A stretch of DNA of 64,000 bases, taken from positions 1 to 64,000 of the forward strand of contig JACRCV010000051.1 of NCBI GenBank assembly GCA_016218825.1, given 5' to 3'. A program made the position numbers and the translations under genes. The notes under the pieces were generated by a model. The model was not told the origin of the DNA and did not search any database. It saw only the letters and a list, made by a program, of their open reading frames with translations. Positions 6,142 through 30,951 of this stretch are shown here, piece after piece. Position 1 is the first letter of the stretch, and every line of letters starts with the position of its first letter. This DNA comes from Deltaproteobacteria bacterium. GTDB lineage: Bacteria; Myxococcota; XYA12-FULL-58-9.

Positions 6142-9747
<3,606 letters not shown>

Positions 9748-14183: not shown

Positions 14184-14194
14184 GCCGCTTCGCC

Positions 14195-14277
14195 TGCATT
14201 TGATTCCCGCGCGGCCGCGGCGGCCGCGCTCCCCACCCCCACTCCCCCGACCCCTCGCCCCCGAGTGGGGCGAGGGG
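14195..14277 (+). repeat. Interspersed double-hairpin repeat, copy 1
   Basis: About 83 bp starting CTGCATTTGATTCCCGCG. It contains a first inverted repeat (GCGCGGCCGC/GCGGCCGCGC), then CCCCACCCCCACTCCCC, then a second near-perfect hairpin (CCCCTCGCCCC/GGGGCGAGGGG). It lies between two convergent genes, where it could double as a bidirectional terminator. Copies at 21792, 24170 and 30847 share the same order of blocks. Confidence 0.75.
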
Positions 14278-14304
14278 CTACGGTCGCCGCGCCCGCAAGG
14301 CGAC

Positions 14305-19407: not shown

Positions 19408-21756
19408 GTGGTGCACGAGCCCGACGCCAGCGCCGGCGAACCGCCGGCGAGCGCCGCGGCGCTGTTGCCGGTCAACTTCAAGGGCCGGGTGCGTGAGGCC
19501 GGCAACCGCAAGCCGGTGGTCTCCGCGGTGATCCAGCTGAGCGGCCGCCCGGTCGCCGAGACCAACGGTGACGGCGAGTTCGAGGTCCGCGGTGCGCCGC
19601 CGGGCGCCTTCGTGGTCCGGATCAGCGCCGCGAGCTACGATCCCTACGAGGTCGAGGAGACCCTGCGACCCGGCGAGGCTCTCGAGGTCAACTACTACCT
19701 GGTGCGCCGTGCCCAGAGCCCGTTCGAGACCGTGGTCCGCAGCCGCGCCGAGCGCCAGGAGGTGGCGAAGGTCGAGCTGCAGCGCCAGGAGGTCAGCAAG
19801 ATCCCGGGCACCTTCGGCGATCCGGTGCGGGTGATCGAGAACCTCCCGGGGATGGGGCGCACGCCCGGCGGCTTGGGCGGCGCGCTCTTGGTCCGCGGCG
19901 ACCGGCCGTCGGCGACCGCGGTCTACATGGACGGGGTCGCGATCCCGCAGCTGTACCACTTCGCCGGCCTGACCTCGGTGGTGAACGCCGAGTTCCTGGA
20001 GAAGATCGACTTCTACCCCGGCGGCTTCGGCGCCCGCTACGGCAGCGCCACCGCCGGCGTCGTCGACGTGACGACCCGCGACGTCCGCTGCGATCTGTGG
20101 CGCGCCGCGGCGAAGGCCGACCTGGTCGACGCCGCGGCTTACACCTGCACCCCGGCCGCCGAATGGCACGTCGCCGCCGCCGGCCGGCGGTCCTACATCG
20201 ACGCGCTGTTGCCGCTGGTCATCGAGCGCGTCGTCAAGAACGACGAGGGTCAGGGGAGCGCGACCTTGTCGCCGCGCTACTGGGACTATCAGGCCAAGGC
20301 GAGTCGGGTCGTCGGCGTGCACGCGATCGACATCTTCGCGTTCGGCTCCGACGATCGGCTGCGCCTGATCCTCGCCGGCTCCGCCGAGAACATCAACGCC
20401 AACTTCGGCGGCCACTTGATGTTCCACCGGCTCGTCGCCCGGGATCGCTTCCGCATCAACGACAAGCTGACGCTGACCTCGACCGTCGCTCCGGGCTACA
20501 CCGCCAACTCCGCGGCCTACACCGCGGAGGAGATCAGCTTCGCCGCCGGCGTGCAGCTGAACGTCTGGAGCGCCGACTGGCGCGAGGACCTGAGCTACGA
20601 GCTCGACGACGGGCTGACGATCAACGCCGGCCTCGATCACCGCCTCGGCACCGCGATCTTCCGCATGGACAATCCGGCGCCGACCGAGCTGCGCTACTTC
20701 CCGACGCGCACCTTCGACTACACCCGCATCCAGAAGTACCGCGCCGACATGAGCGCCTTCAACCAGGGGTACTGGGTCGAGGTCGTCGCCGAGCCGGTCC
20801 CGGGCGTGAAGCTCGTCCCCGGGCTGCGCTTGGATCGCTGGGACTTCTTCCACACCCAGGACTGGTCGCTGTTGCCGCGCGCCACCGCCCGCGTCGAGGT
20901 CGTCGCCGGCACCACCCTGAAGGCCGCCTACGGCCTCTATGAAAAGCTGCCCGAGCCCGGCTTCTTGCTCGACACCATCGGCAACCCCGGGCTCGACCCC
21001 GAGCGCGCCCACCACTTCGTGCTCGGCGTCGAAGAGACCATCACCCCGGTCGTGAGCCTCGACGTCCAGGGCTTCTACAACCTCCGCTCCCACATCCCGA
21101 CGCCGTCCGCGAAGGTCACCTACGAAGACGGCCGCGCGATCTTCGAGGTCTGGTCGAGCACCGGCGCCGGCCGGGCCTACGGCCTCGAGGTGCTGTTGCG
21201 CCACCTGGCGACCGCGGACGGCGCGTTCTACGGCTGGCTGTCGTACACCCTGAGCCGCTCGCTCCAGGAGGACAACAACGTCGACACCACGCAGGCGATC
21301 CAGGGCGGCGGCGGCGGCGGCCGCCCTGCGGCCGACAGCCCGGCGACGGAGCACCTGTCGCCCTTCGACCAGACCCACATCCTGACCGTCGTCGCCCAGT
21401 GGGTGCTGCCCTGCGGCTTCGAGGCCGGCTTTCGTTTCCGGTTGGTGTCGGGCAATCCCTACACGCCCCTCGACCGCGGCGCGGTGCGCTACGACGCCGA
21501 CAGCGACAGCTACGCCTTGGATCTCTCCGGGGTCGAGCGCAACTCGGCGCGGATGCCGACCTTCAACCAGCTCGACGTTCGTATCGATCGCACCTGGGTC
21601 TTCGATCTCTTCAAGCTCACCTGCTACCTCGAGCTCATCAACGCCTACTACGCGAAGAACGTCGAGCAATACAGCTACGACTTCCGCTTCCGCGAGAAGA
21701 CCCCGATCACCCTCCTGCCGATCCTGCCGGTGTTGGGCGTCAAAGGTGAGTTCTGA
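19408..21756 (+). CDS. TonB-dependent outer-membrane receptor
   Basis: 782 residues from GTG 19408. After a short linker comes a carboxypeptidase-regulatory-like domain (GRVREAGNRKPVVSAVIQL...GEFEVRGAPPGAFVVRI, residues ~24-95). A plug domain follows (IPGTFGDPVRVIENLPGMGR...LLVRGDRPSATAVYMDG), then a 22-strand-type barrel ending LPVLGVKGEF with a terminal Phe. It should sit in the outer membrane and import a siderophore, vitamin or other large solute using TonB/ExbBD energy. It has no signal peptide of its own. The signal lies in the preceding in-frame TonB-C-like piece, so without readthrough or repair the product could not be exported. Overlaps the next gene by TGATG. Confidence 0.88.
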   Translation: MVHEPDASAGEPPASAAALLPVNFKGRVREAGNRKPVVSAVIQLSGRPVAETNGDGEFEVRGAPPGAFVVRISAASYDPYEVEETLRPGEALEVNYYLVRRAQSPFETVVRSRAERQEVAKVELQRQEVSKIPGTFGDPVRVIENLPGMGRTPGGLGGALLVRGDRPSATAVYMDGVAIPQLYHFAGLTSVVNAEFLEKIDFYPGGFGARYGSATAGVVDVTTRDVRCDLWRAAAKADLVDAAAYTCTPAAEWHVAAAGRRSYIDALLPLVIERVVKNDEGQGSATLSPRYWDYQAKASRVVGVHAIDIFAFGSDDRLRLILAGSAENINANFGGHLMFHRLVARDRFRINDKLTLTSTVAPGYTANSAAYTAEEISFAAGVQLNVWSADWREDLSYELDDGLTINAGLDHRLGTAIFRMDNPAPTELRYFPTRTFDYTRIQKYRADMSAFNQGYWVEVVAEPVPGVKLVPGLRLDRWDFFHTQDWSLLPRATARVEVVAGTTLKAAYGLYEKLPEPGFLLDTIGNPGLDPERAHHFVLGVEETITPVVSLDVQGFYNLRSHIPTPSAKVTYEDGRAIFEVWSSTGAGRAYGLEVLLRHLATADGAFYGWLSYTLSRSLQEDNNVDTTQAIQGGGGGGRPAADSPATEHLSPFDQTHILTVVAQWVLPCGFEAGFRFRLVSGNPYTPLDRGAVRYDADSDSYALDLSGVERNSARMPTFNQLDVRIDRTWVFDLFKLTCYLELINAYYAKNVEQYSYDFRFREKTPITLLPILPVLGVKGEF

Positions 21757-23000
21757 TGTGCGGCTCTCTCCTACACCTGTCTCTTCTGCCTTTGATTCCC
21801 GCGCCGCGGCTGCCGCGGCGCTCCCCACCCCCACTCCCCCAACCCCTCGCCCCCGGGTGGGGCGAGGGGAGACGATCTCTTCCTCGCCAAGGTCTCGCGC
21901 TTGGGATCTGCGCCCTCGCTGCGGCGTGCACCGGCAGCCTCGATCGTTACGGCGACGTCAAAGACCTGCGGGTGCTCGCCATCGTCGCCGAGCCGCCGGC
22001 AATCCTCCTCGACGTACCGGAGCCTATCTCGATGAGCTTCCGGGCGCTGGTGGTCGACCCTCGAGGTGGCCCCGTCGACTACACCTGGAGCTTCTGCCCG
22101 GTCGAGAGCAACAACGCCTGCGCCGACTACGAGCAAAGGCGCGCCGCCGCCGGCGCCGACGATGGCCCGGCGCTCGACCTGATGCGGGCGATAGCGCAGA
22201 GCGGCACCGCGGTCCCGAAGAACGAAGCCGAGCCACCGCCGCCTTTGAGTTGGTGGGCGACGCGCGCCGTGTGGCCCTACGCGGTGCCGGAGCTCACCAT
22301 CGCGGCTCCCGAGCAGCTGTGGCATTACCACTTCGCAACCAGCTTCTTGGGAATGGGCCTGGGCGCCTGGCCCGCCGCGACGCTCCAAGTCGCGGGTGCC
22401 GACGACACGGTCACCGCGGAGAAGCGGGTCGTCTTGGGCGTCCGCGATCTGCGCCGCTTCGTGGAGTTCTGGGGCGCCGCGCTGCCGTACCGAGTGTGCC
22501 CGGACGGCATGACTCCCGCCGAGGTCCCGGGCTGCCTGAACATCAAGAACATGCCGCAAAACCGCAATCCGGTGTTCGCCGCGGTCAAGGTGGCGGAGGG
22601 CAAGAACGCCACCGAGCCGGTGTGGACCGAGGTAGAGATCGGCCAGCCCGGCGACGTCGCCGGCCTCGCCTACCTCCAGGCGGGGGCGTCGATCCGCGTC
22701 CTCCCGGAGTTTACGGCCGAGTCCTACCAACCATATCAAGTGGTCAAGGGCGACCTGGTGAACGGCACCCTGTTCACCGAAGACCGCGTCGAGGAGCTCT
22801 CGGTGTCGTGGTTCACGACCGCGGGCAAGACCGCCGAGGATCTGACGTGGCCGAAGTTCACCAAGAGCCTGGACACGTCGTACACCGCTCCCGAAGAGCC
22901 GCCGGCGGCGACCGACGGCCGGGTGACCATCTTCATGGTGGCCCGCGACCAGCGCGGCGGCGAGAGCGTGATGAGCCTGGAGCTCATCGTGCGACCGTAG
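21756..23000 (+). CDS. Lipoprotein-like protein with repeat-derived N-terminus
   Basis: 414 residues if started at ATG 21756, which overlaps the receptor stop. Residues ~12-45 are the translation of an interspersed repeat copy (LIPAPRLPRR...APGWGEGRR). Only after this come the hydrophobic core and lipobox expected of a signal (GLALGICALAAACTG). No standard start codon lies between the repeat and that core. The mature protein (RYGDVKDLRVLAIVAEPPAI...VDYTWSFCPV) resembles uncharacterised lipoproteins found downstream of myxobacterial TonB receptors and may act with the receptor. Whether it is exported with this N-terminus is doubtful. Confidence 0.7.
   Translation: MCGSLLHLSLLPLIPAPRLPRRSPPPLPQPLAPGWGEGRRSLPRQGLALGICALAAACTGSLDRYGDVKDLRVLAIVAEPPAILLDVPEPISMSFRALVVDPRGGPVDYTWSFCPVESNNACADYEQRRAAAGADDGPALDLMRAIAQSGTAVPKNEAEPPPPLSWWATRAVWPYAVPELTIAAPEQLWHYHFATSFLGMGLGAWPAATLQVAGADDTVTAEKRVVLGVRDLRRFVEFWGAALPYRVCPDGMTPAEVPGCLNIKNMPQNRNPVFAAVKVAEGKNATEPVWTEVEIGQPGDVAGLAYLQAGASIRVLPEFTAESYQPYQVVKGDLVNGTLFTEDRVEELSVSWFTTAGKTAEDLTWPKFTKSLDTSYTAPEEPPAATDGRVTIFMVARDQRGGESVMSLELIVRP
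21792..21869 (+). repeat. Interspersed double-hairpin repeat, copy 2 (inside a gene)
   Basis: About 78 bp: TTTGATTCCCGCG, then the inverted repeat CGCCGCGGC-TG-CCGCGGCG, then CCCCACCCCCACTCCCC, then a perfect 11-bp hairpin CCCCTCGCCCC-CGGGT-GGGGCGAGGGG. It is translated in frame as part of the lipoprotein gene starting at 21756, between its start codon and the signal-peptide core. Confidence 0.75.
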
Positions 23001-23090
23001 CGGTTGCCAGCCGACCGGCCGGCATACTAGGTAGACGAGAGCGGCCCTGGGAGATGGCGGGGGCGAGGGACCGAACGCGTGGAGGCGTGC

Positions 23091-24254
23091 ATGAAGATCG
23101 AGATCGACGCGGTAAAGTCCAGCTCCGCGAGCCAGATCGCCCGCAAGCTCAAAGGGCTACACTTCGGCCGCGAGTTCAGCGACCGGATGTTCCTGGCCGA
23201 CTGGAGCGAGCGGCGCGGCTGGCACGCGCCCCGCGTCGTGGCGCACGGCCCGCTGACGCTGGATCCGGCGGCGAACGTCTTGCACTACGCCCAGCAGGTG
23301 TTCGAGGGCCTGAAGGCGCATCGCTTGAAGGACGGGGGGATCGCGATCTTCCGCCCCAACATGCACGCGCTGCGCTTCGACTGCTCGGCGGAGCGGCTGT
23401 GCATGCCGCCGGTCGGCACCGAGCTGTTCGGCGCCGCGGTGGACACCCTCGTCGATCTCGAGCGCCGCTGGGTGCCGCCAAGCGGCGCGGGCGCGCTCTA
23501 CATCCGCCCGACGCTGATCGCCACCGAGGCGGTGCTCGGGGTGCGGGTGTCGTCGACCTATCTGTTCTTCGTCATCGTCGGCCCGGTCGGGCCGTATTTC
23601 CCGAACGGCTTCAAGCCGGTCAAGATCTACGTCGAGCAGAGCTACGTCCGCTCGACGCCGGGGAGCATCGGTTTCGCGAAGTCCGCCGGCAACTACGCCG
23701 CGAGCCTGCTCGCCGGCAGGCACGCCTACGAGCGCGGCTGCGATCAGGTGTTGTTCCTCGACGCCAAGGAGCACCGCTACCTCGAGGAGCTCGGCGGGAT
23801 GAACGTGTTCGCGGTGATCGACGGGGTGCTGACGACGCCGCCTCTGTCCGGCAGCATCTTGCCGGGCGTCACCCGCGCCACGATCTTGGAGCTCGCGCCG
23901 CGCTTGGGCCTCGAGGCCCGCGAGCGGCCCATCGCCTTGGACGAGATCACCCGCGGCCTGGAGCACGGCCGGGTCACCGAGATGTTCGCGGTCGGCACCG
24001 CGGCGGTGGTCACCGCGATCGGCAAGCTCGTGGTCGGCGACCAGACCCACACCGTCCACCACGGCGGCGTCGGCAAGATCGCGCAGACCCTCTACGACCG
24101 CCTGACCGGCATCCACACCGGGGTCATCCCCGACACCGACGGCTGGATGCACGAGGTCCGCGAGCATCGCCCCCGCCCCACCCGGGGGCGGGGGACGGGG
24201 GGTGGGGGTGGGGAGCGCCGCGGCAGCCGCGGCGCGGGAATCAAGAAGAGGTAG
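23091..24254 (+). CDS. ilvE: Branched-chain amino-acid aminotransferase
   Basis: 387 residues, a fold-type IV PLP enzyme that interconverts Val/Leu/Ile and their 2-oxo acids with glutamate. Motifs include LHYAQQVFEGLKAHR (about 64-78), IRPTLIATEAVLGV, the PLP lysine in GFAKSAGNY (K197), the EELGGMNVF loop and the GSILPGVTR cofactor-phosphate segment. This is the long bacterial/eukaryotic type II BCAT. ATG 23091 is chosen over GTG 23079 for the native MKIE start and its GGAGG. The usual C-terminus DGWMHEV ends at residue 356; the remaining 31 residues (RPRPTRGRGTGGGGGERRG...) are encoded by a reverse-oriented interspersed repeat. Convergent with the DUF2279 gene. Confidence 0.93.
   Translation: MKIEIDAVKSSSASQIARKLKGLHFGREFSDRMFLADWSERRGWHAPRVVAHGPLTLDPAANVLHYAQQVFEGLKAHRLKDGGIAIFRPNMHALRFDCSAERLCMPPVGTELFGAAVDTLVDLERRWVPPSGAGALYIRPTLIATEAVLGVRVSSTYLFFVIVGPVGPYFPNGFKPVKIYVEQSYVRSTPGSIGFAKSAGNYAASLLAGRHAYERGCDQVLFLDAKEHRYLEELGGMNVFAVIDGVLTTPPLSGSILPGVTRATILELAPRLGLEARERPIALDEITRGLEHGRVTEMFAVGTAAVVTAIGKLVVGDQTHTVHHGGVGKIAQTLYDRLTGIHTGVIPDTDGWMHEVREHRPRPTRGRGTGGGGGERRGSRGAGIKKR
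24170..24244 (-). repeat. Interspersed double-hairpin repeat, copy 3 (inside ilvE 3' end)
   Basis: About 75 bp in reverse orientation. Reading the minus strand it gives TTGATTCCCGCG, the CCGCGGCTGCCGCGG inverted repeat, CCCCACCCCCACCCCCC and a CCCCCGCCCC/GGGGCGGGGG hairpin. It covers the last ~25 codons of the aminotransferase frame and sits at the junction of two convergent genes. Confidence 0.72.
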
Positions 24255-30817: not shown

Positions 30818-30846
30818 TCGCCGCCGGCTGCATCTCTGATCTTCAC

Positions 30847-30951
30847 CTGCATTTGATTCCCGCGCGGCCGCGGCGGCCGCGCTCCCCACCCCACCCCCCG
30901 TCCGCTGTCTCAGCGTCGGCCAGATTTCCCCCGCCCCGGGTGGGCGGGGCG
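30847..30951 (+). repeat. Interspersed double-hairpin repeat, copy 4
   Basis: Starts CTGCATTTGATTCCCGCG, identical to copy 1 through the GCGGCCGC inverted repeat and CCCCACCCC. The middle is then expanded (CCGTCCGCTGTCTCAGCGTC), and it ends in a CCCGCCCC-GGGT-GGGCGGGG hairpin. A partial second copy of the left end follows at 30967. Confidence 0.72.

What the first reader, a model, noticed from the sequence alone, without database searches (positions are those of the whole stretch)
21756..21925. Repeat inserted within the signal peptide of a lipoprotein gene
The start codon of the 21756 gene and its hydrophobic signal core with lipobox (CALAAAC) are separated by the 78-bp repeat, read through in frame as a Pro/Arg-rich insert. 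There is no alternative start after the repeat. Either a new N-terminus has been domesticated or lipoprotein export is lost.
Basis: partly seen in the sequence, partly recalled or inferred. Interest (0 to 1): 0.6.

Follow-up and report, generated by a model that had tools for sequence, protein, structure and literature searches.

The report
Mobile repeat inside protein export signals
A short mobile DNA element has landed, in reading frame, inside the export signal of a bacterial lipoprotein gene; the same element has done this in at least a dozen unrelated exported-protein genes of this genome, probably because the added stretch is cut off with the signal.

Summary
The repeat in the lipoprotein gene at 21756 is one of at least 125 copies of a CTAG-ended, inverted-repeat miniature element (MITE-like) in this Myxococcota genome. 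Removing it restores MCGSLLALGICALAAAC, an ordinary short lipoprotein signal, with CTAG at the empty site. Four of four orthologues whose N-terminus was examined lack the insert and start at the same ATG, overlapping the TonB-receptor stop codon. Most copies sit at gene ends, often exactly on a TAG stop. At 12 loci, though, the element lies 1 to 9 codons after the ATG of a downstream gene, in frame, directly before an export signal (8 lipoproteins, 3 Sec type I, 1 prepilin-like). All 12 are in sense orientation; 0 of 19 antisense neighbours are like this. My reading: it is translated as an n-region extension, export persists, and signal peptidase removes the extension, so signal peptides tolerate the element. 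Protein-coding MITEs are known (Rickettsia RPEs; Yersinia RU-2 in a signal peptide). Recurrent use of signal-peptide n-regions with this orientation bias appears to be a new variant. Export itself was not tested.

The parts
19408..21756 (+). Upstream TonB-dependent receptor gene; its TGA overlaps the ATG of the lipoprotein gene (TGATG)
   Evidence: Pfam PF00593, PF07715, PF13620 over cut-off; overlap read
21744..21750 (+). Shine-Dalgarno-like AGGTGAG before ATG 21756
   Evidence: anti-SD duplex -8.5 kcal/mol against a random-site mean of -3.6
21756..23000 (+). Lipoprotein gene with the insert (414 aa)
   Evidence: no Pfam family at E<=0.1; orthologues
21774..21896 (+). Inserted MITE-like element plus one copy of the presumed TA target, 123 nt = 41 codons
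   Evidence: ends compared with 124 aligned copies; join test
21771..21774 (+). Left end, CTAC (consensus CTAG)
21894..21897 (+). Right end, CTCG (consensus CTAG)
   Evidence: the automatic 14-mer match to the right terminal repeat failed here (7 mismatches at best, elsewhere), so placed by eye and by frame
21801..21821 (+). Hairpin 1 of the element (21801-21809 with 21813-21821)
   Evidence: 95.8% of cells paired, 5 pairs with changes on both sides, 0 of 500 shuffles reach the covariation score
21843..21869 (+). Inverted repeat 2 of the element (21843-21853 with 21859-21869)
   Evidence: read from sequence; the minimum-energy fold of this copy pairs part of it differently
21792..21794 (+). 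Only other in-frame start codon (TTG), inside the element
21891..21929 (+). Remaining hydrophobic core and lipobox GLALGICALAAAC
   Evidence: Kyte-Doolittle 12-mer 2.22 with insert, 2.57 joined
14188..14300 (+). Second copy of the element, between convergent gene ends
24184..24244 (-). Third copy; read antisense it supplies a C-terminal tail to the aminotransferase ORF 23079-24254
30841..30899 (+). Fourth copy of the element

Best explanation
The repeat is a non-autonomous miniature inverted-repeat element that inserts at CTAG, apparently duplicating TA. CTAG is rare in this genome and a good share of its occurrences are stop codons, so copies collect at gene ends. Where two genes of an operon abut or overlap, the same spot is also the first codons of the next gene. 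Here the element entered CTAG in the signal-peptide codons five codons after the ATG, added 41 codons in frame, and gave the lipoprotein a 45-residue Pro/Arg-rich n-region before a short but intact hydrophobic core and lipobox. Inferred, not shown: translation starts at the ancestral ATG, Sec export and SPase II processing continue, and the extension is discarded with the signal peptide. That would explain why in-frame N-terminal inserts persist in exported-protein genes.
For: 125 copies in G000, 5 in G001, 0 in the other 56 of 58 genomes. Left terminal repeat within 3 mismatches in 25 of 124 copies (shuffled about 0.15), right in 24 of 124 (shuffled about 0.5). The join gives MCGSLLALGICALAAAC with CTAG at the junction. 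4 of 4 orthologues have no insert and the same overlapping start. 89 of 108 called left flanks are genes ending at the element; in 38 of those 89 the stop codon sits at the CTAG position. 12 loci carry an in-frame insert before an export signal; 12 of 26 sense-downstream genes against 0 of 19 antisense, P = 0.0004. Background hydrophobic N-terminus 46 of 116 genes, so 12 of 12 has P = 1.5e-5. SD-like pairing before the 12 ATGs is stronger than random, P = 6e-5. Best orthologues of three more of the 12 genes also lack an insert.
Against: No transposase partner found: DDE_3 (IS630) 0 hits in G000; three Y1 transposases but no element motif in the loci around them. Both end tetramers of this copy are degenerate, so its exact borders rest on frame and comparison. 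The empty site is a reconstruction; no close strain without the insert was available. Export and start-codon use are inferred. Class membership of the 12 loci was partly decided by eye, after looking, so the P values are descriptive.
Confidence: 0.72

Rival explanations
1. Export of this lipoprotein is lost: the insert wrecks the signal peptide and the gene is on its way to a pseudogene.
For: The element splits the h-region, adds Pro-rich sequence, and both element ends have decayed, so it could be an old, unselected insertion.
Against: ORF intact over 414 aa and lipobox intact. 11 other exported-protein genes show the same in-frame arrangement and no frameshifted case was seen among 26 downstream genes. 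Remaining hydrophobicity (2.22) lies within the range of the two orthologues measured (1.57 and 2.84).
Confidence: 0.13
2. Translation starts inside or after the element, so the extension is never made.
For: Element frame B often holds an in-frame GTG in inverted repeat 2; in this gene TTG 21792 is in frame.
Against: No ATG/GTG/TTG after the element in this gene; TTG 21792 has no SD (duplex +1.0) against -8.5 for the ATG. ATG plus open frame precedes the element at all 12 loci. Using TTG 21792 would still leave most of the extension.
Confidence: 0.08
3. The extension is domesticated: it changes export timing or route (an ESPR-like long signal, or Tat by GRRSLPRQ before the core).
For: Recurrence at 12 loci, sense orientation only, a twin arginine encoded in frame A of the element; long n-regions with proposed function exist in autotransporters (PMC2805444, passages).
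Against: The peptide differs between two frames and several subfamilies while the hairpin covaries at the DNA/RNA level, which points to constraint on the element, not on the peptide. The distance from RR to the core differs between loci. The Tat motif is recalled and the match imperfect (Pro in place of Leu).
Confidence: 0.12
4. Assembly artefact: short-read contigs were wrongly joined at the repeat.
For: Many contigs end near a copy of the repeat.
Against: Receptor then lipoprotein gene order and the TGATG overlap are found in relatives without the repeat; the join is in frame here and at 11 other loci.
Confidence: 0.03

Closest known systems
Rickettsia palindromic elements (RPE)
   Same: Dispersed palindromic element of about 105-150 bp read in frame within protein genes (PMC10969869 and PMC2229807, passages)
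   Different: Here almost all coding insertions found are in signal-peptide n-regions, the rest at gene ends, with CTAG ends and G+C-rich sequence; one mid-gene case (c033)
Yersinia YPAL/RU-2 in YPO1552
   Different: RU-2 supplies residues 1-30 of that protein; here the native ATG and h-region flank the element and at least 12 unrelated genes of one genome are affected
Correia elements and RUP (IS630-type MITEs)
   Same: Terminal inverted repeats, TA at the ends and target duplication (PMC2229807, passages)
   Different: No IS630 transposase found here; location at stop codons and in signal peptides
Pneumococcal BOX elements
   Same: Lie at gene 3' ends and can encode the stop codon (PMC3049150, passages)
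   Different: Different structure; no signal-peptide insertions in the passages seen
REP/REPIN elements
   Same: Gene-end location and hairpins (recalled); the genome has three Y1 transposases
   Different: No element motif in the loci around the Y1 genes; the ends look TA-duplicating

Membership tests
MITE | Short, high-copy dispersed unit without its own transposase | tested here: met
   at least 125 copies; span CTAG to CTAG mostly 122-149 nt in well-ended copies
MITE | Terminal inverted repeats | tested here: met
   CTAGACCGCTTTCG / CGAAAGCGGTCTAG far above shuffled control; degenerate in most copies, this one included
MITE | Target-site duplication shown by an empty site | tested here: inconclusive
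   Inferred from the in-frame join; no near-identical empty strain available
IS630-mobilised MITE (Correia/RUP type) | IS630 transposase with matching ends in the genome | tested here: not met
   PF13358: 0 hits in G000; genome 96.5% complete and fragmented
REPIN | Copies flanking a RAYT (Y1) transposase gene | tested here: not met
   No element motif in the loci of the three Y1 hits
RPE-like protein-coding repeat | Read in frame within otherwise conserved genes | tested here: met
   12 loci at N-termini, one mid-gene
RPE-like protein-coding repeat | Insert present in the mature protein | not testable with these tools
   Predicted here to be removed with the signal peptide, unlike RPE
Bacterial lipoprotein | h-region followed by lipobox Cys | tested here: met
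   GLALGICALAAAC; a lipobox-like Cys also follows the core in four orthologues; no signal-peptide predictor available

The most novel reading that the evidence does not exclude
Signal-peptide n-regions are a recurrent safe harbour for this mobile element: it is translated into many exported precursors and then erased by signal peptidase. Its sense-only occurrence may mean that the encoded Pro/Arg-rich leader is actively useful, for instance for export timing or route.
Probability: 0.2. Interest if true: 0.8.

Novelty: new variant of a known kind. Interest (0 to 1): 0.6.

Why it matters
If right, it names a place where mobile DNA can live inside coding sequence at little cost: the part of a protein that is thrown away after export. 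It gives a natural set of at least 12 long n-regions for testing how much a signal peptide can carry, and it explains by one target rule (CTAG) why copies pile up at stop codons and, in tight operons, just behind start codons. It also warns that N-termini of exported proteins in such genomes are easily mis-annotated.

Tried and rejected
An unsupervised codon model locked onto the antisense frame (it called the receptor gene '-') and was discarded; the final calls use a model seeded on four genes of the window. Earlier counts with a looser model are superseded. An apparent orientation bias at gene ends was dropped: contigs often end on the right side of a copy, which favours finding left flanks; among copies with long flanks, codirectional pairs are 15 sense to 11 antisense. 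Only the N-terminal class keeps an orientation bias. A terminator role was not tested and is disfavoured by 12 copies inside operon-like gene pairs. REPIN and IS630 partners were sought and not found. The related-loci scan with the mature protein found nothing.

Rows dropped or handled by eye: the pattern gives 125 matches and 124 distinct copies were recovered. c014 shares its gene with c013 (one locus). The 26 sense-downstream genes are the 21 called plus c013, c077, c098, c104 and c120 seen; c116 and c118 were left out (the called frame opens only 401 nt and 197 nt past the core, so it is not tied to the element). c062, c078 and c107 count on both the sense and the antisense list. In the 14 sense neighbours without the insert I saw a start codon after the element in each; c122 is doubtful. 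MlaC hits in G003, G005 and G006, and c045 hits in G002, G005, G006 and G022, were partial or had unclear starts and are not counted as insert-free. Many other matches are partial and their N-termini were not examined. L002 and L003 did not print their overlap in the script; it is read. A first Fisher table used other totals and is not used.

Full report
What is there. The ORF at 21756 starts with an ATG that overlaps the TGA of a TonB-dependent receptor gene. It runs 414 aa with the repeat read through in frame. Between the repeat and the lipobox Cys there is no ATG, GTG or TTG in frame; TTG 21792 inside the repeat is the only other candidate and has no SD.

What the repeat is. A core pattern (GATTCCCGCG, 8-20 nt, CGCTCCCCACCCC) occurs 125 times in this genome, 5 times in the same-genus genome G001 and not in the other 56 of 58 genomes searched; the backward pattern occurs 0 times. 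Aligning 124 distinct copies shows a unit that begins CTAGACCGCTTTCG and ends CGAAAGCGGTCTAG, with an inner hairpin kept by paired changes on both sides (95.8% of cells paired, 33 double-changed cells against 11 in shuffles; the rows are 28 chosen cores from G000 out of 55 of that length, and one from G001). Well-ended copies measure mostly 122-149 nt CTAG to CTAG. This is the anatomy of a MITE.

The insertion in this gene. Lined up with the family, the element runs from 21774 and, with the doubled TA (here TC), to 21896: 123 nt, 41 codons. Taking it out leaves ATGTGCGGCTCTCTCCTAGCGCTTGGG..., that is MCGSLLALGICALAAAC, with CTAG at the junction. Orthologues in G001, G002, G004 and G007 (40-49% identical) start at the same place, overlapping the receptor gene, and go straight into a signal core and lipobox. 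These four are all the relatives whose N-terminus I examined.

Where copies sit. With a codon model seeded on four genes of the window, 89 of 108 called left flanks are genes that end at the element, and in 38 of those 89 the stop codon lies at the CTAG position. CTAG is rare: 17 in the window against 64 expected from its trinucleotides. Of 43 CTAGs in 163 kb, 13 are stop codons, 19 intergenic, 9 inside genes and 2 in the first 25 codons. An insert into TAG with TA doubled restores TAG on both sides, so it would cost the upstream gene nothing (inference).

The recurrence. At 12 loci the element lies 1.3 to 9.3 codons behind the ATG of a downstream gene, in frame, and directly before an export signal: 8 lipoproteins (this gene, c009, c010, c013, c015, c045, c067, c077), 3 type I signals (c002 phosphonate-binding, c052 MlaC, c068) and one prepilin-like protein (c020; N_methyl 18.0 bits, below its 21.2 cut-off). 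Both open sense frames are used; the third holds TGA at the core in nearly every copy and was open in 0 of 108. The element is open in a random sense frame with probability 0.39 and in a random antisense frame with 0.55, yet no antisense N-terminal insert was found: 0 of 19 against 12 of 26 (P = 0.0004). A hydrophobic N-terminus is seen in 46 of 116 background genes. The 12 ATGs have better SD pairing than random sites. Best orthologues of MlaC (G001), of the c009 protein (G002, G005) and of the c045 protein (G003, G024, G009) carry no insert. The classes were drawn after looking and partly by eye, and the open frame is part of the definition; the P values describe, they do not prove.

How it probably works. 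Shown: element, copy number, ends, frame, orthologues, recurrence. Inferred: TA-duplicating transposition at CTAG, start at the ancestral ATG, continued Sec/SPase II export, removal of the extension with the signal peptide. The peptide differs between frames and subfamilies while the hairpin is kept, so I read the peptide as a by-product that this part of a protein can bear.

Against and open. No mobilising transposase was identified. This copy's end tetramers are decayed (CTAC, CTCG); the left CTAG is lost in 10 of 12 N-terminal loci, so these inserts are probably not brand-new. No signal-peptide predictor or experiment was available.

Literature. In-frame palindromic elements in Rickettsia proteins and MITE-protein fusions are known (PMC10969869, PMC2229807, PMC5896051: passages). 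One MITE-derived signal peptide, YPO1552, is described in detail (PMC2759123: passages and section 16). BOX elements can encode stop codons (PMC3049150: passages). Long autotransporter signals show that extended signal peptides exist (PMC2805444: passages). I found no paper on recurrent signal-peptide insertion or on this repeat in the listings; the library holds open-licence papers only.

Noticed in passing
24184-24244 and ORF 23079-24254: A copy on the minus strand supplies about 28 C-terminal residues to the aminotransferase class IV ORF (its native stop seems lost) and lies just behind the stop of the minus-strand DUF2279 ORF.
   Followed up: partly
L065 (copy c033): One copy sits in frame in the middle of a gene, read antisense, with coding signal on both sides.
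   Followed up: no
L042 (copies c013, c014): Two tandem copies lie in one lipoprotein n-region, giving an N-terminal extension of roughly 80 residues.
   Followed up: partly
Many contigs of G000, e.g. C3, C24, C30, C46, C84, C89: Contigs end about 150-200 nt from a copy of the repeat: the element breaks the assembly.
   Followed up: partly
Copies such as c036, c077, c086, c095: A subfamily has a different right half (AGCCAACCTAGCGGGGGGACC...) joined to the same left half, as if modules were exchanged.
   Followed up: no
6931-8084: Tandem Cys/Asp-rich repeats of about 171-177 nt spacing.
   Followed up: no
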